Positions 6,837-64,000 of a DNA stretch of 64,000 nucleotides are shown here, one piece after another. A program made the translations under genes and the position numbers. Position 1 is the first letter of the stretch. Each line of letters begins with the position of its first letter. Under the pieces are notes generated by a model. It did not search any database. It had not been told where the DNA came from and was given only the letters and a program-made list of their open reading frames with translations. Origin of the DNA: Chytridium lagenaria (taxonomy: Eukaryota > Chytridiomycota > Chytridiomycetes > Chytridiales > Chytridiaceae); contig JAHLKC010000098.1 of the NCBI GenBank assembly GCA_025449115.1, forward strand, positions 62,001 to 126,000, in the 5' to 3' direction.

Positions 6837-9225
6837 ATGTTCAAATCCAAGCCAACATCTCCACCTGTAGGTTCTCCCCAGGCACTCCTGGCACAAAAAC
6901 CTCCATCTCAACCAGCACAACCATCACCAAAAACCCAAACGGCGAGTCCATCACCACCATCACCAAAAAGACAACCACCACACGCTGTTACGGGAAAAGT
7001 GCTATCAACTTCAACCTCTACGACCACATCCACAGGTGCATCCCTTCTATATGCAGTACACCTCCAACTTCTCCGGGAGCAGTCAAACAACCCGTTAAAC
7101 CTGTTTCGGCGCCTGCTTTAAAACCAAAACTATCGGCAGCCCAGTTTTATGGACCCCTTACATCCTCCGACCCTTGCTTTGACGAAACTCATCAGACTTT
7201 GAAGAAATTGAGGTAAACTGTCTTGAAGATAGTAGCAAAATCGGCCGCAAAGCTTGGTGTTTGTTTTTATGAATGCCTTTTAACTTTGGGGGAGTCTTTG
7301 GACTTCAATATTACCCGGGGGAAAAAAGTACTTAACTCACGCCTATTTTTATTCTACTCCTTTGAACACATACAGATCCGCTGTTCAACCGGTCCTACAA
7401 ATCTGAATGCCACTGATATCACACCAACCTCCTGCCCACTTAAGACCGCGTCTCGGCTCCCTCTCGTCTTACCGGACACCCAATTCACAGCTGTCGATGC
7501 ACACGCCATATCCCCATCCAAGGCCACATGCGTCGACACACTAGCCCTCCACCTCACCCAACCCTACGCACGAGACCTAATCAACAAATTCCGAGCCATA
7601 TACCGCTGGATCGCGAATAACATTGCCTACGACGTGAAATCCCGTGAGTGACTCGTTCCCTTTTTGCATTACTAAATCGTTGGATAGTTTACGTCGGGCA
7701 AGTATCCCCCTCAAACACCTGATGCTGTTTTAAAGACGAAATTGGGGGTGTGCGCTGGTTACGCGCAGTTGTTTAAGGCGCTTTGTGATAGCTCGAATCG
7801 ACAACTTGGGGTTGGTGTTCCTCCGCTTATTTGTCATGTTGTGAGAGGGTATGGAAGAGGAGTTGGAGCGCATGCTGGAGACGCTGTGATCAAGAACATG
7901 GATGATCATGCTTGGAATGCTGTTGTGATCGGTGATGCACATGAATGGAGGTAAAGTATCAAGTAATTTTTAAGAGCGTGTTTTTTACCTAATTAATGGA
8001 CAATAGACTTATCGACGCGACTTGGGGTGCAGGATATCTCAAGAATAACAGTTTTGAAAAACGTTTCACGTCAACCCATTTCCTCGTCCACCTAAACTCT
8101 TTATCCACTCCCACATCCCTATCCCAACACACGCCCACTTCCAAGGCCTTCAGCCGGCTCTCACCCATCAAGATTTCCTCGCCTCCCTTTTTCCGCGAAA
8201 GCCTCATCTCCGCATGGGGTTTCCCTCATTACATCACGCCGCAAGGGTTCCGTATTGTCAAGAAATCAGGGTCATCCGGCTTGGCGTCTGTCGTCACGCG
8301 AAACAGGTTGATGATGATAGTCTACCCGCTGGTGCCAAAGTTTTCTCTGTGACGGTTGATGTGCCGAGGACGTGTACGGCGAGGATGCATGCGACTTTGG
8401 AGTATCCGGTGCCTGTCAGGAAGGTGTATGTGAAGGGACGAGAGGAGGATGCGAAGAGGGTTTGGGGGGAGGGGGTGAAGGAGAGTAGGAGTTTGGAACC
8501 GAGAGGGGCGGGGAAGGAGGTGAAGGGGTGTGGTGTAATGGGGTGGTGTGAGGCGGTGAGGGAGGGGGGAAGGAAAGGGTGGTTGAGGTATAGGGTGAAA
8601 GGGTGGATTGTACCACAAAAAGGGGAAGAGGAATAGGGAAGGGTTGTTGATTTTGATGCATTTGAGGTTTGTTCAATACTCCTTCCTTTTTTTTTCTCTT
8701 TTTACATCTCTCTCATTCTATGAACACTACTACTTTGTTTTATTTTCGCTTGTACATTATTAACTAAATCTAACCCTTTGCGATTTAACTTTATTTTTGT
8801 TTTGCATAAATAGCCAGATGCAAACCTCCAAAAACAACCGTCCTCCTACACCTTCAAGCCTCTCATCGAATTCCGCGTCATCCCCTCTCTAACCCCATCC
8901 TCCACCTCCACCCGCACCCTCCCCATCCCTCCAAACCTCTACCAAACCCTCATCTAACCTTAACCTCTCCTCCCTCGGCGCTCTCCCAATCAACACGCCC
9001 ATCACCTTTCGCGGCATCTTGACGGCCCCCGATGCAGACACGCATGCGTATGTGGTGTGGCCGCAGAGCAAGAGGTATGAGAGATTGGAAAATGAGGAAG
9101 CGAGTGGGGAGAGGGTTGCTTTGACGGTTGTTGTGGATGTGAAGGGGGATTGGGTTTTGGCGACGGGACGGAAGGGGGGGGCTGGGTTGAAGTTTGAGTT
9201 TGCGGGGGTTTATAAGGTTGTGTAG
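6837..9225 (+). CDS. Transglutaminase-like protein, kyphoscoliosis-peptidase/Cyk3 type
   Basis: Papain/transglutaminase fold protein. Relatives such as yeast Cyk3 and animal KY act in cytokinesis or cytoskeletal organisation. The first ~90 residues are a Pro/Ser/Thr-rich linker with no SH3 domain seen. The core is spread over exons near 7377-7643, 7690-7951 and 8008-8640, plus a last exon from about 8815 to the stop at 9225. The triad is visible: Cys in LGVCAGYAQLF, His in DDHAWNAV and Asp in LIDATWGAG, preceded by YRWIANNIAYDV. The C-terminal KY extension (LGALPINTPITFRG, then THAYVVWP) is present but split by at least four frame shifts: between DFLA and FFRESL (about 8180), near 8305, near 8955, and at about 7045. 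Either the assembly has indels here or the gene is decaying; the intact triad argues for the former. Confidence 0.75.
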
Positions 9226-55982: not shown

Positions 55983-58146
55983 TTATTTCACCACCTCAAA
56001 CACAACACACCTCTCCAATCCTCTATGATCTCTCAACGTCTCCACATACCTCCACCCTTCCAATCCTTCACCACCACCAATCTCACGAACACCATTTGTG
56101 TCTTTATCTTTCCATCGACCTTGCCATGTACCGTTGAAAAGACCAATGACGTTTTGGGCCATGCCGTGACCGACTTCGAGAAATAGACGACAGTTCGGTG
56201 CAAAGTTGTGGGAGGGAGAGGTGCGGAGACCTTCACGGATTGAGAGGTATGCTTCATAGCCTGACAACGTAAAGGGTGAAAGCGGGTGTTAGATAAATGC
56301 GATGTAATGAAACGGGAAAAGTAGCTATAGTATGATTTAAGGGAAAAAATCTTTAACACGAGTAAATAACATCCTCACCTGTTTCTCCTGCAATCAACGC
56401 CAACTCTGGTTCCTCCAACAACCTCTCCCCATCCTTCACCTCAAACATCCCCTTCCTCTTATTCAAATAAGGTGGATTACACACCACAGCATCCCAACCC
56501 CCCCACCCTTCCTCCTCCCACCTCACCTCCCCAACCCTCCCAAACTCTCCAACCACAAACCTCGCATCAACTCCTAACCTCCTGGCATTCCCCTTTGCAA
56601 CCTCCAAAGCCTCCATCGATAGATCCATCCCAACACCGCGACTCGTCCGCGGGGTCAGGGCATGGAGGAGGGAGATGAGGAGACAGCCGGAACCAGTGCC
56701 CATGTCGAGGATGGAGGGGTGGGACGTGGAGGCGAGGTGGTGGAGAGCGGATGTGACGAGGATTTGGGAGGAAAGACGCGGAATCATGACGGAGGGTGTT
56801 ACGGTAAAGATGAGATCGTGGAAGGTCTATTGGAAAGTAGAAAACGGGTGAACACGTGAATAATAAAAGTAAAGTTACAGGTGAAAAGGTTAAGAAAAAA
56901 AACTAGAAAAAAGCAAGGACTAAAAACAAGTATTACTTGAACGCCTGTAATATACGCAGGATTCTTCATCGTCGTTCCTCCATCCACCTCCCCACCCAAC
57001 AGACACGCATCTCTCTCCTCCTTCGCCGCCGTGAATTTTGTTTCCTTTGTTCTCAATCCCCCAAACTTTGTCGGTTCCTCATGTGAAAGCTGCACAAGTT
57101 CACCTGTCCTTGGATGGCGAAACGTTACAGATATGATCGCCATGTAGGTGCCTCGACCTTGACATGTCCGGTGCTAAGGATTTGTAAGGTTTATCTGAAA
57201 AATAAAGGTCTGAATTACAGGTTTGGTATAACGGGAGACACCGATGACGGGATGATCTATGGTGAACATGTGGGAACGGATTTGGACGCCGGACGGGGCA
57301 GAGTGGGGGATGGCCTGGGGAAAAAAGATATTATGCATTTAATATAGACGTGAAACTAAGATTTCGGGAATAAAGTGATCTAGCTTACATCGACGGTTGT
57401 GAGCCAGCCGTCAGGGGAGTTTCGGGATGACGTGAATGATACTATCTTGACTTTGGTTGACGCTGCGACGCCTTTTTAAAACAAGGAATAAAAAAACAAC
57501 AATGAAACAGTTAAAATGGCACATTCCGCATTGAGGGTATTGCTAAAAGGTAAGCAGAAAGTGGAAGGAGATATTCACCATTAACAGGCTCCTCTATCAC
57601 AAACTCGTCCCCCTCCTTCAAGTCCTTCCCAGCCCCAACTCGTCCATGCACAACAGCCCTAAACACAACCTCCTCAATTTCAACCCCAACCCCGCATCCC
57701 GACTTTCCAAATACCACCAGCCCCGACACACTATTCTCCAAAAAATAAACACACTGCGGGACCTCCAACTCCCCCTTTGTCACATGATGCGACACCGCCA
57801 TCTCAAAAGTCCTCACCTCCCCATTCCTCAACACCATCCCAGAAGGCTTCCAAGCCACACACACATCCGCATCATCATAAACAACCTCAACAGGCACATA
57901 CCCATCCCTCTTCTTATTCGCCTGTTCCAATGTCCTTAAAATCGTCACCACATCCCCAACAGCAACCCTCACCCCCTCCACAGCCACCACCCCATTCACC
58001 TGCACCTGCTTCAACTTGAACGCCTCATGACTCTGCGATTTCGACGGCACGATCGTTGGGAACCGTTTCCTTATAAACTTGTGCAGCGGTTCCCCTGCAT
58101 CCCCCACGTCAACCGTGCAAGACGACTGTTTGCGGTTTTTCTCCAT
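55983..58146 (-). CDS. Fused RluA-like pseudouridine synthase (degenerate) and HemK/PrmC methyltransferase
   Basis: One gene, two modules. N-terminal: an S4-like segment (KLKQVQVNGVVAVEGVRVAV) and an RluA-type fold (VVYDDADVCVAWKPSGMV, then the active-site strand CVYFLENSVSGLVVFGKS). RluA enzymes have HRLDxxTSG there, so the catalytic Asp is Glu in this copy. Later come SGVQIRSHMFTIDHPVIG and VTFRHPRTGELVQL, the RluA C-terminal strand. C-terminal: NPAYITGVQ, TVTPSVMIPRLSSQILV, the SAM motif ILDMGTGSGCLLISLL, and the catalytic VVCNPPYLNK of N5-glutamine methyltransferases that modify translation release factors. The end is RLFLEVGHGMAQNV. RluA and HemK motifs share one exon and frame (about 56937-57143), which proves fusion in the genome. 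The start at 58146 (MEKNRKQ) is chosen to avoid overlap; an in-frame Met at 58251 would overlap the next gene. Confidence 0.88.
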
Positions 58147-58155
58147 TGAAATTTG

Positions 58156-58980
58156 ATGAAGAACGTTACGGTGTTTTGTGGGAGCGCTGAGGGACGGTTG
58201 CCTGTGTATCGGGAGGCTGCTGAGACTGTTGGGAAGGAGTTGGCGAAACATGGACTTGGTCTTGTGTATGGAGGAGGGTGAGTTTGACCCTTGTGGGGGT
58301 TGTACTATTTTACACTTTGTGCTGAAGCGTGGATAGGGATTTGGGGTTGATGGGAGCTGTGTCGAGAGCGGCTTTTGAGGCTGGTGGGAAGGTGTTAGGG
58401 ATCATACCTGAGGCGATGGTAAGTTCTTGTTTAAAGGCCTTTTTTCTTATAGACGTTGTAGACCAAGATTGAGGGTATTGGAATGCTTGGGGAGACGATT
58501 TATGTCAAGGTTGGTGAATGTCAGAGAGCTTCAAGTGATGATGAATCGTCTAGGACATGCATACACGTAAGGGGTTGATGAACAAGAATTGTGATGCGTT
58601 CGTCGGACTTCCTGGTGGATTCGGTAAACCTCTTACATTCACTCTAAACCTTCTAAACTGCAACTCCAGGCACTTTCGAAGAAATCCTCGAGATGGCGAC
58701 ATGGCATCAACTCGCGATTCACGCAAAGGTAAAGAGAACAACCGTACAATTCTAACAGGAACCCCAATAGCCCATTATTGTGTTAAACATTAACGGATTT
58801 TACGAACCACTTCGAACATTACTCGAGCATTCCATCAAGGAAGGATTTATTCGGGAAGGGTTTAAAGATATTATCGTGTTTGTTGATAGACCGGAGGACG
58901 TTGTGAAGGCTTTGTTTGATTACGATAAGGTGGTGGATCAGTACGCCATTCCTTGGGCAAATCCGTCGGAGGCTGGGTAA
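58156..58980 (+). CDS. LOG: LOG-family cytokinin riboside 5'-monophosphate phosphoribohydrolase
   Basis: Releases free cytokinin base (or acts as a nucleoside-5'-monophosphate phosphoribohydrolase). Cytosolic, homo-oligomeric. Six exons join in phase: 58156-58277, 58337-58418, 58461-58509, 58554-58623, 58670-58728 and 58771-58980. Motifs: MKNVTVFCGSAEGRLPVY start, LVYGGGDLGLMGAVSRAA, GIIPEAM, DMHTRKGLMNKNCDAFVGLP, then the catalytic PGGFGTFEEILEMATWHQL (PGGxGTxxE) and PIIVLNINGFYEPL. The length of about 197 residues matches the family. There is no frame break. The first ATG lies 9 bp from the divergent RluA-HemK start, so the two promoters must overlap or extend into each other's transcripts. 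Confidence 0.95.
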
Positions 58981-59480
58981 AATCTGTCGCTGCTTCTCTG
59001 CGAATTCAAACCTTAACCCATGTCTTGATATGAACTACAATCAATATATTCACGTACCTGCAAAAAGTGGAAGAGGGGGAAGAATGAGCCATCTTATTTT
59101 TCAGATAAAACAAAAACAACAACAATTTAACGCTATTACACGGAATACGCGTAATTATTCTTTTTTCATACTTTAAGCTTTACATTGACCAAAACGAACT
59201 AGGTGGGTAGAACCTGCCTGACTGAGAGCACTTGCTCGCCGTGGAAATTACTTTTTAGGTCATTCGCTGTTGTACTTTCAGAGCAGTAAAGCCATATCTT
59301 TTCTGTTCTCACGTATGTCTGCAACTTGGTAGGTAAAAAATGATATGGAAGTATCGTGTTTTTATCTGTTCTAACTAGTGCTTGATATACGACATGCATT
59401 TGCTACAATATGTAGCACCTAATCATGAGATAAATAATTTATGTCATTATATATTGATAAATATTCCTTTTGACCATTAC
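58981..59480. other. Intergenic between LOG and the transposase gene
   Basis: No supported gene. A 66-codon minus frame at 59199-59399 has no recognised family. The left end of the transposon should lie here, but no inverted repeat partner was identified by eye. Confidence 0.4.
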
Positions 59481-62400
59481 AGTGGGAACACAATTCAGTG
59501 ACAAACGACTTGCGGTGGATGATTTTGAGAGCGGTGAGGGAGAAGATGACGAAGATGCTGACGATAATGAGTTGTGGGTATCTTCAAAAACATTTCTAAC
59601 TTAACAACTTTAGAGAAGATGATGTAGACGATGCTGCGGACATGCTGCGGAAGTTGATGGAAATGGGCCGGTGGATGACTACCTTCACCGACTTTATACG
59701 AGGCTTATGGACGACATATCGAAAAAAAGCCAGAATGTCTCGAGCCTTTATAAGGCACTTTTGGACGGAAAGCTTTGGGTAGACCCACCGGATCCTGTGG
59801 CAGACCTAAACAATTCGCTCAAAAAGGGGTTTAAGCCAGATCCCAGCGTATTTTACCTACCCCGCGTTTTTTTGTGTTCCCCGACATATCTTTTGCACCG
59901 TTTCAGTAAGTCTTTTTTTTTTCGAAATAATAACAAAACACATAATTAAATTAAACCGCAGATTCTCGTGCCAGTATTGTCAGAGCTCGGAAAATGTGAA
60001 GCGTCGTCGGCCAAAGCGCTCGTTCAGAAAAGTTTACAGCTTGACAGACGGCTGCTACTATATATTCACATGCCAGTAAGTGTTTCCTTTCAAAGACTTT
60101 CAATTTCTCCTTCATTTATCTAATAAAATAATATCTTTATTGAATTTTAGCTACAACTGTCACAAGTGCCCAAAAAACCCAAACCAAAAAACAGCCTCTT
60201 GCTTCCTCGGAACGCAACCTTCCGCTATTCGAACCTTACCTCGAGCGATTCAAGAAGCTTTCCCTGCTCTATTGACGAAGAAGATAGGAGTTGATAACGA
60301 TATTCTGGCGCTGCTATGTCAAGGGTGTGAGAAGGGTTTGGGGCCAACGCAAATTAGCGGAATCTGCAAGGAAAACTATACAGAAGCATATGCGAAGAAA
60401 ATGTTACGATACTGGGATTTGGGCTTTTTCAAAGCTTCCGACGCGACCTGCTCTGAGCTATGTGCTTAAACGCGACCTAAGAACGATACCTGACTTCTCA
60501 AGTTTCTTTGATCGGAGTGGTTATAATGGACGATTTCCATCAGGTTCGCATTTCCATTTTCGTTTTTGTCTAAAAATATTCGCTTCAGGTACCTACCTTC
60601 AAAAGGTGTTTGTTAAAACAATGGAACTCTCGGAACCTGTTTATAACGCAGAATGCCATCGCCTTACAAGTGATATATATAAATGTGATGATAGTTTTAA
60701 GGTATGTTACAACCTGATTGTCTTTTTATTCACATAAAGTATAGATAGTCAAACACTCTCAGCAAAAAGGCGGACAGTCTCTTCACAGTGCATACTGCAC
60801 TATAATGACAAAGTACGGCGAGATAAAAACCTCGATGTTTTTGCAGTCGGGTTCGCATGACGTAAGGGACCTCCGTTCCGAGCGCTGGCTGATTCTATAG
60901 CAAGACACAACCCTGATCAGCGAGCCCCTGTAGAGTTTTTCTACACCGATAAGTGTTGCGGCATGGGGGGAGACCGACCTTTTTTGGAGAGTGTTTTTCC
61001 ATCGTTGAAGGACGGCCTTGCTATTCCACCGCTCCTAAGCTTGCCGGGGAGCCCCGGATTTATCTCAAAGACCGGAAATCTTGTTACAGTTTTGCAACCT
61101 CTCTTAGAATTCATGGATAATGGAGCGGATCTGATTGTTGGATTTGATACTGAGTGGAATATGCCCAAACGGCGCGGCCAACAACGTTCCCGCGTCTGTC
61201 TCATTCAAATTGCATTTCGCAAACTTAGCGGATACCATACAGAGCGCGTCTTTCCAAACGGTAATGCATTATTTCTGTAACTTTTACATGTGCCGTTTTC
61301 TACCTTTCATAGATACCGTGCTTTTGATTCAGCTCAATCCTGACAAGCCAACAGTGCCAGAGGTCCTGAAGGAGTTATTGGAACATCCTCGGCTTATTGC
61401 TTCTGGACGGAGCGCAAAGCAGGATGCCAAAAACTTACTCGATGATTACGCCATCAAGATGGGAAATGTTGTTGCTCTCGAGGAATACGCGCGCGATCAC
61501 CACCTGCTCCACGGGGATAGACGTCGCTGGTCATTGCAGATGATGGCAGAGACTTTTCTGGGTTTTACGTTGGACAAAGGCGAGGACCTTCGAAAGACTT
61601 CCTGGTCAGCAGATCTGTCAGAGGCTAAAAAGTGTTACGCCGCTCGAGACGCTTGGGCTTCACTACTTGTTTACGAGACAATGCAAAAGGCGGTTGCCAA
61701 TGCGGACGACTCCGTAGTGATCCCTCCTCATGACTTAGCTTTCCAGAGCCAGACGACGCGGCAGAGGCTCACCCATCTCCAACGAATTCCTCCAGGCCGG
61801 TTTCAAATGAATCTCAGCATTCTGACCGGCACCAATCCAACTTTCCGGTCTACAGACGGGGATTAAAGACTCGCGTCTTACTTGATATATTCCATGCCAT
61901 GAGACGAATCACCAAGTTCATACCCAGCAAGCATCCTTTCCTCGGCATCTTCTGCGCAAAGTTAAGGGATGCATTCTTTCTGTTCAACGACGACGATAAG
62001 CAAAAGGTTGAAGACTACATTGCGGAACAAAGGGATGATTTTGGACGGCCATGTACATTTGAGTCTCTGCTGCGGAGCAAGCCCCAATGGATCTTTGAAC
62101 GTGTTCGACGCCGGGTTCCTCCGCCAGATAAGCTAGAGGAATTGCTTGAGAATGTAGTGAAAAAGCCAGAATATACGTCGACGCCAAAAGGTTGCTGGAC
62201 GAGAAAGCTTTGGCTGCGTATGAAAAGCTCCTTATTCACGTGAGGAACGGCTGCATTTCCGACCCCCCTGGCGTAAACCTCTATTTCAAGACGGGCATTG
62301 ACAAAAAGAGCGGGCTTCAACTTTATCGAACTATCCGCGGAACTAACGCAGTTGAGACCTACCATCAAAAGCTGGAGATGCACATGGAACCTTGGAATGC

Positions 62401-63751
62401 CAGCCCTCAACTTTTGCACTATGCTACGATGGTTCACAGGCATCGTTACAACGTTCGCGCATCTCAAAAACTCCGGCCTCACTATCCAAAAACAGGAAAT
62501 TACTCGAATTGGCTGTATGATCAGATTATATTGACCAAAGAGAAATTGTATGGTCGTCGTCATCAAGGATTTTATTACGAGCAGTTTACAAGAATTTCAC
62601 CGAGTCTTGATTTTGAGCCTTTTGGAGTTGTTCCCGTTGTTGAACGGAAGGACTTTGAAGATGTTGAGAATGCCCCCAGTTTAAGGGATACTCAACTTCT
62701 GAAAAGTTTCTCGCAAAGAAGATGAGGACAGTCGTGCCACATACACCAATACAGTCGGAACAGGAGAGAGCTTTATTTTTTCGCTTCATACCTCACTACG
62801 AAATAACTCGCTTTGGGACTGGTGAAGCTGCGGGGAAGGGGGGAGACTGGAAGCGAATGGCGGCGGACTGGAATATCGGAAAGTTATGCTTGCACGGGAA
62901 GTTGGATCCGCTAAACCAAATGTTGCCGCGAAAATATTCCAGAAATTGCCTGATCATCTCGAACAATACTATAAGGTACTAAATTATGAAAGTGATTTAT
63001 TAACAAGTTCAGATATATGTAGAGAGGTGGCAGAAGCGATTCAAGGAGCAGAAACAAAAAGGTGCAGTTCAAATAATGGACCGCCGAGCGGAGGATATTA
63101 GAAAAACAGTGGAGGGAGAAATGATTGAAGGGTCTACCGTGTTCCAAGAGCCCGAAGAGCTTCTCCCTGATTATGGCGAGATAATGCACTACTTTGAGGA
63201 GAGAGAAGGGGAAGACGAGGTCAATACTAACTCGGAAGGAGATGACATACAAATGGAGACTGACCTAATTCGCCTTCCACATCTCCATCCCATACAATCC
63301 TTCCCCCTTCTTCGCCTCAAGCTCGCGTACCCTTTCGAATCCCTTATATCCCATCAATCGGAAGTACATCTATGGAAGATGTTACTGCGCAATCTGTTGT
63401 TGAAATCGCGCAGCAAACAGTTAGAGCATCAGTGCCCTCGATAACGCGAGAGGAACAGCCAGAAAGACAAAGAGCAGCGGGAAAAAAAGTAAGGGAGTGT
63501 AAAACATGCGGGTTGGCCAAATGCAAAGGTAAATTAAGAATATTCTTGCCTACCTAACTTCCAAGGTGCAACACCCCGCGGATCTTGTGTGAATAAATGC
63601 GAGAAGTGTAGAGAAGAGGATTGTCCAGGAAAGGGATCAAAAAAAGGTTAGCAATCGAGTTGGATGTGTGGAAAAGCTACTGACCTTTTCCTGAGAAGGC
63701 CAAAAATGTCGATGGCTACTTCTCGGCAGCCGCACGCTGCAGCCGAAATGA
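59481..63751 (+). mobile_element. Large KDZ-like transposase gene with embedded 3'-5' exonuclease
   Basis: One long gene with short introns and several frame shifts. Order: an acidic N-terminus; WVDPPDPVADLNNSLKKGF and FYLPRVFLCSP; a Cys-pair module YNCHKCPKNP; TLPRAIQEAFPALLTKKIGV and GCEKGLGPTQISG. I associate these with a DUF6729-like region of fungal transposase relatives. Next is the first half of an RNase H-like core: YKCDDSFK, IMTKYGEIKTSMFL, VEFFYTDKC and FLESVFPSL. Then a WRN/RNase D-type exonuclease: LIVGFDTEWNMPKRRG, RVCLIQIAF, SGRSAKQDAKNLLDD, EAKKCYAARDAWASLLVYE. The second core half has DIFHAMRRITKFIPSKH, DAFFLFNDDDKQKV and YRTIRGTNAVETYHQKLEM. The tail is Cys-rich (CKTCGLAKCKG, CEKCREEDCPG). 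The stop is at 63749-63751; the 5' end is uncertain. Confidence 0.8.
61075..61725 (+). CDS. 3'-5' exonuclease (WRN/RNase D type) domain within the transposase
   Basis: DEDD-superfamily exonuclease. Exo I: VGFDTEWNMP, with the Asp and Glu of DxE. Exo II: LLEHPRLIASGRSAKQDAKN, with Asp. Exo III: CYAARDAWASLLVYETM, with Y-x3-D. All four acidic residues are present, so it should be catalytically competent. One intron (about 61262-61312) interrupts between FPN and DTVLLIQLN. It sits between the two halves of the RNase H-like transposase core, as an insertion domain rather than a terminal fusion. Confidence 0.85.
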
Positions 63752-63915
63752 AGAAATAATTGGTCGACGAATAACGTTAATTAATACATAAATAAAGATT
63801 TACATCATTTTTAAGTCAGCTCGCAACACTCACCGTTAATTCCCAACTGCGATCGAAAGGTATGCTAGGCTGTAGATAGTTATCATCCATTAGAATACAA
63901 CGCAATCAGTCTTAC

Positions 63916-64000
63916 CTAGATCCGTCCTGTCCCTTCCCGTCTCTTCTTCCCCTTCCTTCAACCTCTCCTTCTTCCCCTTCCCCATCGATACCCAGTTGAA
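63916..64000 (-). CDS. 5' exon of a gene running in from the right edge
   Basis: On the minus strand MGKGKKERLKEGEEETGR, then DRTDL, ends at a clean GTAAGA donor (63910-63915). The Met is at 63985, but the frame stays open upstream to the window edge. Lys/Glu-rich, no family recognised. Only about 160 bp separate this donor from the transposase stop, so the rest of the gene is missing here: it is either very short or interrupted by the element. Confidence 0.35.

What the first reader, a model, noticed from the sequence alone, without database searches (positions are those of the whole stretch)
59481..63751. Transposase whose RNase H-like core is split by a complete WRN/RNase D exonuclease
The order is DUF6729-like Cys region, first catalytic half (CDDSFK, YTDKC), intact DEDD exonuclease, second half (DIFHAMRR, RGTNAVE), then a Cys-rich tail. 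An exonuclease placed inside the transposase fold suggests end processing coupled to excision or integration. I recall related proteins expanded in Basidiomycota and Glomeromycotina and relatives among KDZ transposons, but the mechanism is undescribed as far as I know.
Basis: partly seen in the sequence, partly recalled or inferred. Interest (0 to 1): 0.75.

Follow-up and report, generated by a model that had tools for sequence, protein, structure and literature searches.

The report
Jumping gene with built-in nucleic-acid trimmer
The window holds a worn copy of a fungal jumping gene whose cutting enzyme carries a complete DNA- or RNA-trimming enzyme in the middle of its own cutting domain, an arrangement that looks widespread in fungi but whose job has not been tested.

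Summary
Real, and a transposon. The window copy (59485 to ~55 bp past the window's end) is a truncated, frame-broken member of a ~5.6-kb element. Four other copies in the same genome keep inverted ends (GGCCC...GGGCC) and 7-8-bp target duplications. The element encodes one protein: DUF6729 zinc region, Asp1-Asp2 half, WRN-type DEDDy exonuclease, DxxH...Glu half, Cys-rich tail. Of 166 homologs, 139 hold both halves; 137 of these have the exonuclease between them and 2 hold remnants. Both active sites are nearly invariant. Copy-to-copy changes show purifying selection, weakest in the exonuclease. Motif spacing puts the insert between Asp2 and the DxxH strand, before the site where P-element transposase has its insertion domain. 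KDZ kinship is not supported; the core is weakly MULE-like. Ten literature searches showed no description. Best reading: a DDE transposase with a nested, co-inherited exonuclease that trims 3' ends during transposition (role inferred).

The parts
59485..64000 (+). Left-truncated, frame-broken copy of a ~5.6-kb TIR transposon; it continues ~55 bp past the window end (to the equivalent of 64055)
   Evidence: Aligns at 97-98% DNA identity with C60, C57, C178 and C148; ends compared
59485..59907 (+). Remains of the N-terminal acidic part (at least two exons)
   Evidence: Translation; longer in sister copies C60, C57 and C178, with an upstream basic, AT-hook-like exon (by eye)
59963..60420 (+). DUF6729 Cys region (CxxC...CxxC), one intron at about 60075-60150
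   Evidence: Pfam PF20499 27.4 bits, cut-off 27, on the piece 60149-60466; sites
60426..61013 (+). First catalytic half: D1 in DDSFK (60687-60701), D2 in YTDKCC (60942-60959), then FPSL; two introns
   Evidence: D1 57 of 57 and D2 63 of 64 ungapped rows of the 68-row A2; weak MULE profile match in homologs
61137..61710 (+). WRN-type DEDDy 3'-5' exonuclease (DTE 61146-61154, Exo II D in SAKQDAK 61411-61431, YAARD 61636-61650), one intron at about 61262-61312
   Evidence: PF01612 51.4 bits; the 170-aa domain against WRN 2e6l E 5.8e-13
61711..61870 (+). Linker between the exonuclease and the second half (short in this lineage, longer with an extra conserved block in basidiomycete members)
   Evidence: Exo III D to DxxH: 57-101 residues in P0001, P0002, P0003, P0084; 180-250 in the other 24 of 28 rows
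61872..62368 (+). Second catalytic half: DIFH (the C/DxxH motif, 61884-61895), a stretch presumed helical, GCISDPPG (62249-62272), RGTNAVE (62336-62356, proposed catalytic Glu)
   Evidence: DxxH to E 151-161 residues in 28 rows; E 57 of 57 ungapped rows of A2
62369..63261 (+). Conserved C-terminal region with one intron at about 62977-63006
   Evidence: Partly matched by the family profile
63489..63648 (+). Cys-rich tail (CKTCGLAKCKG, then CVNKCEKCREEDCPGKG after an intron)
   Evidence: weak profile matches (E 0.004 and 0.075)

Best explanation
Its single large protein is a DDE-type transposase in whose RNase H-like core a WRN-type DEDDy exonuclease is inserted between the strand carrying the second Asp and the strand carrying the C/DxxH motif. 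The ordinary ~150-residue stretch between DxxH and the catalytic Glu is kept. Because WRN-type exonucleases are themselves RNase H-like, one RNase H-like nuclease would be nested in another. Proposed mechanism: AT-hook-like and DUF6729 zinc regions bind the inverted ends and subterminal repeats; the D-D-E site cuts and joins the ends at a staggered target, giving 8-bp duplications; the exonuclease, held beside that site, trims the 3' ends exposed on flanking (donor) DNA. Shown: element ends, duplications, one protein, conserved residues of both sites, co-inheritance, purifying selection. Inferred: that the halves close into one fold, that both sites are catalytic, and what the exonuclease digests.
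For: Inverted ends and duplications in four copies: C57 GAGAATTG, C178 AAAAAAAG, C148 TAAAAAAA (8 bp each; the last two are A-runs, weaker singly), C60 AACATTT (7 bp). One reading frame joins D2 to the exonuclease, and another joins the exonuclease to the second half, in C60. 137 of the 139 homologs with both halves hold the exonuclease between them and the other two hold remnants. Active-site letters in 68 rows, ungapped: D1 57/57, D2 63/64, E 57/57, exonuclease D 67/67, E 67/67, D 65/66, Y 68/68, D 68/68. Exonuclease and transposase distances of 30 rows correlate, r=0.872, 0 of 999 permutations as high; both trees part the same five rows from the other 16. Codon changes among five copies: 69 synonymous to 18 nonsynonymous over six segments; exonuclease 9 to 7 against a neutral expectation of ~25:75 (P=0.0086), first half 11 to 1. 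Spacing: D1-D2 70 residues in 23 of the 26 rows (of 30) that could be measured against 73 in P-element transposase; D2-DxxH 262-469 in 28 rows against 36 there (D230, D303, D339 and E531, passages of PMC8230255).
Against: No structure could be predicted, so fold closure is unproven. No solved structure or above-threshold Pfam family matches either half; the MULE match is weak (best E 0.0058) and profile-profile probability against the genome's own MULE is only 2%. Coevolution was uninformative: first-half/second-half pairs were not enriched (0.086 observed, 0.108 background). The exonuclease evolves more freely than the halves between copies (7 of 16 codon changes nonsynonymous). The best exonuclease tree did not keep the family apart from other exonucleases; holding it as one clade was not rejected either (AU p 0.226). 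The trees are midpoint-rooted, flag long branches, and the window's second-half row fills 38% of the columns and ends in out-of-frame residues. No activity is known, and a 3'-5' exonuclease could destroy the very 3' ends that a DDE enzyme joins.
Confidence: 0.55

Rival explanations
1. The exonuclease is part of the transposon protein but does not process transposition ends. It digests RNA or repair intermediates, for instance to blunt host silencing or to degrade competing DNA ends, and sits at a tolerated loop of the core.
For: Several nucleases and other enzymes are carried by DNA transposons as accessory functions (KolobokD, KolobokE, KolobokP: PMC9587614; TET/JBP dioxygenases: PMC12730594, abstract and passages). 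Relatives in the hit list include both DNA and RNA enzymes (WRN, RNase D, RRP6). The exonuclease is less constrained between copies than the halves.
Against: Its position inside the core is the same in the two deep lineages seen, where a terminal fusion would serve as well. The closest solved relative is WRN (E 1.1e-35), known to act on DNA ends (recalled).
Confidence: 0.25
2. The flanking pieces do not form one RNase H core: the first half is a separate domain (or completes its triad before the exonuclease), and the second half is another domain with its own role. The exonuclease then merely lies between domains.
Against: The order D1-(70)-D2-...-DxxH-(~154)-E with nearly invariant DxxH and GTNxxE follows the DDE layout of P-element transposase; MULE, a transposase domain, is the only Pfam family matching more than one member's first half, and both Asp residues fall in register with the genome's own MULE, at low probability.
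Confidence: 0.2
3. The element is a KDZ (Kyakuja-Dileera-Zisupton) transposon.
For: Zisupton also makes 8-bp duplications (PMC12730594, passage) and KDZ matches occur in this genome.
Against: PF18758 appears in none of 30 members at E<=5; profile-profile probability 0.9% and 0.1% against ten KDZ pieces, a shallow template; Kyakuja has 7-bp duplications and no TIRs.
Confidence: 0.03
4. The joined architecture is an artefact of two or three neighbouring genes or of gene models.
For: The window copy is frame-broken, with no single frame across the exonuclease-second half junction.
Against: Uninterrupted frames in C60, and 137 homologs with the same order.
Confidence: 0.01

Closest known systems
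Fungal proteins annotated '3'-5' exonuclease' or 'DUF6729 domain-containing' (e.g. P0004 Armillaria gallica, P0001 Phlyctochytrium planicorne, P0084 Amoeboaphelidium)
   Same: Same module order and active-site letters; the window element is a member of this family
   Different: Of the names shown, none calls these fused proteins transposases. Basidiomycete members carry an extra conserved block after the exonuclease; P0001 has an OTU protease domain
P-element / THAP9 transposases (PMC8230255, passages read)
   Same: D1-D2 spacing (73 against 70), [C/D](2)H motif, an insertion domain between that strand and the Glu helix; a foreign activity (GTP binding) housed in an RNase H core
   Different: Their insertion lies after the C/DxxH motif; here a second insertion, an exonuclease, lies before it. 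Direct comparison with P-element proteins was not made beyond Pfam and PDB profile searches, which gave no match
KolobokD DNA transposons (PMC9587614, sections 10, 11 and passages read)
   Same: A DNA transposon that encodes a DEDD-type 3'-5' exonuclease; C/DxxH motif in the transposase
   Different: DEDDh (TREX/ERI1-like), listed among accessory proteins, in animals; the parts I read do not place it inside the transposase core. The WRN-type DEDDy here is nested between D2 and DxxH
MULE transposases (PF10551)
   Same: Weak profile similarity of the first half; both Asp residues in register with the genome's own MULE at 2% probability
   Different: Below Pfam's cut-off; no exonuclease in the MULE model
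Rotifer LTR elements with a DEDDy exonuclease ORF3 (PMC5718144, passage read)
   Same: A DEDDy exonuclease carried by a mobile element
   Different: Retroelement, separate reading frame

Membership tests
TIR DNA transposon (cut-and-paste class) | Terminal inverted repeats | tested here: met
   GGCCCACTTGCCATACCGTACCA against GGCCCCTTACCATACCGTACCA at the two ends of C57; much the same in C178, C60 and C148. The window copy itself has lost the left repeat and most of the right one
TIR DNA transposon (cut-and-paste class) | Target-site duplications | tested here: met
   8 bp in C57, C178 and C148 (the last two A-rich); 7 bp in C60
TIR DNA transposon (cut-and-paste class) | Excision and re-insertion activity | not testable with these tools
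   No experiment; 0.8-3.6% divergence between copies suggests fairly recent movement
DDE/D transposase with RNase H-like core | Conserved D, D, E with C/DxxH between D2 and E | tested here: met
   D1 57/57, D2 63/64, E 57/57 ungapped of 68 rows; DxxH H 30/30 and D 29/30 rows of A3
DDE/D transposase with RNase H-like core | The two halves close into one fold | not testable with these tools
WRN/RNase D-type DEDDy 3'-5' exonuclease (PF01612) | Profile match over the cut-off and all DEDDy residues | tested here: met
WRN/RNase D-type DEDDy 3'-5' exonuclease (PF01612) | Nuclease activity and its substrate | not testable with these tools
   Needs purified protein
DUF6729 (PF20499) | Match over the gathering score | tested here: met
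   27.4 against 27 in the window piece, though the six-frame search scored the same place 25.1, under the cut-off; 25 of 30 members of A3 match at E<=5, best 4.2e-23
KDZ (PF18758) | KDZ transposase domain | tested here: not met
KDZ (PF18758) | 8-bp duplication (Zisupton) | tested here: met
   not specific, hAT usually makes 8 bp too
MULE (PF10551) | MULE domain over its cut-off | tested here: not met
   Best 16.9 bits against 27.6 among 8 fragments; best E 0.0058, 3 of 9 members
KolobokD | Kolobok transposase with a DEDDh exonuclease as accessory protein | tested here: not met
   The exonuclease is DEDDy and inside the transposase; kinship to Kolobok transposases itself was not tested

The most novel reading that the evidence does not exclude
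A distinct superfamily of fungal DNA transposons in which an exonuclease of the RNase H-like superfamily is nested inside an RNase H-like transposase core at a second insertion site (between D2 and the DxxH strand), forming a two-active-site machine that cuts and then trims 3' ends, so that donor-site repair or strand choice is controlled by the transposase itself.
Probability: 0.35. Interest if true: 0.8.

Novelty: new variant of a known kind. Interest (0 to 1): 0.62.

Why it matters
Many DDE transposases carry an insertion domain in their catalytic core, often between the fifth strand and the Glu helix; for the cases discussed in the passages read (Tn5, Hermes, P element; PMC8230255) none is described there as a nuclease. 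A second, complete nuclease at another point of the core, kept in chytrid, aphelid and mushroom relatives, would show that the core tolerates an active enzyme there and would give a direct handle on how excision, end trimming and donor repair can be coupled. It also gives a testable role to a large group of fungal proteins now filed as exonucleases or unknown, and a way to find and mask these elements in fungal genomes.

Tried and rejected
KDZ kinship: rejected at profile level. Separate genes: rejected by frames in C60 and by the homologs. Exonuclease-free relatives: sought with the second half alone; 116 of 120 hits carry a detectable exonuclease; of the other four, P0131 holds a remnant, and P0088, P0098 and P0137 show only the second half. 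The first two searches used queries that contained the exonuclease, so they favour hits that have it. Single origin of the exonuclease by tree: not shown, long branches. Mean-field coevolution for contact between the halves: inconclusive. Relatives in viral contigs: 0 confirmed of 4 stretches matched by the one pattern used; in prokaryote contigs: 0 of 161, with the single protein P0084, which reaches close relatives only. PDB and Pfam search with each half: nothing significant. Rfam, gathering scores, 56000-64000: nothing. Four other DUF6729 places in the genome: no match to the exonuclease or second-half part of the family profile on either strand within the ~1.5 kb held on each side. Many short derivatives of the element: not found; the end core ATACCGTACCA occurs 17 times against 34 for the reversed control, about 11 of the 17 at ends of copies already known; the left end was found in 9 places and the right end in 6. 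Literature: ten searches; DUF6729 occurs in 0 papers; no listed title or abstract start, and no passage that I read, described this architecture; Iyer et al. 2014 (KDZ) is not held, so I could not check it.
Full report
What is there. The stretch 59481-63751 encodes, in pieces, a DUF6729 Cys region, a segment with CDDSFK and YTDKCC, a DEDDy exonuclease, a segment with DIFHAMRR and RGTNAVE, and a Cys-rich tail. Of ten pieces scanned, Pfam recognises two: DUF6729 (27.4 bits, cut-off 27) and DNA_pol_A_exo1 (51.4 bits, cut-off 23.6). The frame breaks near 60420, 60860, between 61710 and 61872 and near 62177, and several introns interrupt the rest, so this copy as assembled cannot make the protein.

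It is a transposon. The window is contig C98, 62001-126000, of a 41.9-Mb genome in 356 contigs. Near full-length sister copies lie on C60, C57, C178 and C148, with partial ones on C181, C93 and C86. Substitution divergence between the five longest copies is 0.8-3.6%. C60, C57 and C178 run 5590-5631 bp between inverted ends GGCCCACTTGCCATACCGTACCA / GGCCCCTTACCATACCGTACCA (C57); C178 reads GGCCCCCACTTG at the left. C148 keeps both ends but has roughly 11 kb between its left end and the rest, probably a nested insertion. Flanking duplications are GAGAATTG (C57), AAAAAAAG (C178), TAAAAAAA (C148), all 8 bp, and AACATTT (C60, 7 bp); two of the four are A-runs and so weaker singly. The left end of C178 carries three imperfect 18-bp direct repeats within about 110 bp, candidate binding sites. 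Against these, the window copy lacks about 1.0 kb at the left and about 20 bp of the right inverted repeat, and ends ~55 bp beyond the window. The family is of low copy number here: 9 places match the left end, 6 the right end.

One protein. In C60 a single 178-aa frame runs from the first half through YTDKCC into the exonuclease's DTE motif, and after one intron a 421-aa frame runs from the exonuclease through DIFHAMRR to just before RGTNAVE; C57 has an unbroken frame over RGTNAVE. Different copies are broken at different places (by eye); C57 has one private substitution but eleven private indels of 1-2 bases, so some breaks are probably assembly errors (inference). Codon changes among the five copies are 69 synonymous to 18 nonsynonymous over the six segments; the neutral expectation is about 25:75. 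The exonuclease alone has 9 to 7 (P=0.0086), the first half 11 to 1, linker plus second half 31 to 6, the region round the Glu and C-terminus 15 to 3, and the DUF6729 exon 3 to 1 (P=0.054, not significant alone). The coding sequence, exonuclease included, was thus under selection until fairly recently; the exonuclease is the least constrained of these pieces.

The family. Three protein searches gave 166 distinct proteins (4, 81 and 120 hits, overlapping). With profiles of the three modules, 137 read first-exo-second, 12 first-exo, 12 exo-second, 3 second only, and 2 first-second; the last two hold exonuclease remnants. Named sources are mainly Agaricomycetes (class recalled from the names) plus Phlyctochytrium planicorne (Chytridiomycota) and Amoeboaphelidium protococcarum (Aphelidiomycota). 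In a 68-row alignment the D1, D2 and E residues and the five exonuclease residues are nearly invariant. Exonuclease and halves diverge together in 30 rows (r=0.872, 0 of 999 permutations), and separate trees of the exonuclease and of the second half part the same rows: window, chytrid, aphelid and two unnamed against 16 others, of which the named ones are Basidiomycota (midpoint-rooted, long branches flagged, window second-half row incomplete). A tree with WRN, EXD2, an ancestral diDNase and host exonuclease pieces could not show that the transposon exonucleases form one clade (AU p 0.226); single capture is therefore suggested by the shared position, not shown.

Where the insert sits. D1 to D2 is 70 residues in 23 of the 26 rows that could be measured (of 30; the others 76, 54 and 24); P-element transposase has 73 (D230, D303). 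DxxH to Glu is 151-161 in 28 rows; P element has 192 (D339, E531), where D339 belongs to the [C/D](2)H motif that starts its insertion domain between the fifth strand and fourth helix (passages of PMC8230255). D2 to DxxH is 36 residues in P element but 262-469 here. So the exonuclease occupies the D2-DxxH interval, between the helix after the fourth strand and the fifth strand if the layout is the usual one, and the usual insertion seems to be present too. The superfamily review PMC3985635 (sections 20 and 24 and passages read) notes insertions between the second helix and fifth strand in family-B polymerase exonucleases, so the site is known to tolerate additions; it also places PF01612/WRN exonucleases in the RNase H-like superfamily. 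This mapping rests on motifs; I could not obtain a predicted structure, and coevolution did not help.

Kinship of the core. The exonuclease's nearest solved relatives are WRN exonucleases (E 1.1e-35 with the family profile; 5.8e-13 with the window's own domain). The halves have no significant solved relative. Pfam gives the first half only weak MULE matches (E 0.0089, 0.12, 0.2 in 3 of 8 fragments; 3 of 9 with best 0.0058). Aligned to the genome's own MULE, both Asp residues fall in register, but the probability is 2% with a shallow template. KDZ finds no support, although KDZ and MULE matches both occur in this genome.

How it most likely works. From the anatomy: DNA binding by AT-hook-like and zinc regions; cutting and joining by the D-D-E site with an 8-bp stagger; trimming of exposed 3' ends by the exonuclease. 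In hAT elements the 3' end freed on the flank attacks the other strand to form a hairpin (PMC6900584, passages); a 3'-5' exonuclease next to that site could limit, trim or reset flank ends, or resect the donor site to favour copy-restoring repair. This step is inference. The alternative that the exonuclease works on RNA or in counter-defence cannot be excluded. [quoted passage not shown]

Novelty. Nothing seen in the ten literature searches describes this protein as a transposase or the nested arrangement; I saw listings and passages, not every text, the library is partial, and Iyer et al. 2014 could not be read. It is filed as a new variant of a known kind: a DDE-type TIR transposon with a new domain insertion. 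Whether it deserves its own superfamily depends on the structure.

Noticed in passing
59188-59279: Tail of a dispersed short repeat found in at least 8 other places (77-82% identity), ending in a common ...TTTTGTACTTTAA before unrelated flanks: retroposon-like.
   Followed up: partly
G000 C15:98803, C14:394417, C18:14353, C32:146111 (L058, L059, L062, L063): DUF6729 open frames without exonuclease or second-half matches within about 1.5 kb on either side; DUF6729 seems to be used elsewhere too.
   Followed up: partly
L045:5886-6389 and 8028-8367; L051:3210-3715: A repeat with ~340-bp inverted copies lies right of the window copy; a copy of it abuts the broken C181 element.
   Followed up: no
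G000 C148, about 67943-78638: Roughly 11 kb separates the left end of the C148 copy from its body: probably a nested insertion.
   Followed up: no
Basidiomycete homologs, between exonuclease and DxFH: A conserved block (...IAxGxIS...VPGA...) between the exonuclease and the DxFH strand that the window lineage lacks.
   Followed up: partly
P0001 N-terminus: The Phlyctochytrium homolog also carries an OTU-type cysteine protease domain.
   Followed up: no
G000 C128:100931-101063 and C12:444222-444320: Diverged copies of the element's left end (83% and 81%) on contigs where the exonuclease search found no match: possible non-autonomous derivatives.
   Followed up: partly
56353-58980: By eye: host-type genes left of the element, a HemK/PrmC-like methyltransferase (- strand), an RluA-like pseudouridine synthase (57511-58401, - strand) and a LOG-family gene (about 58500-58980, + strand).
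   Followed up: no
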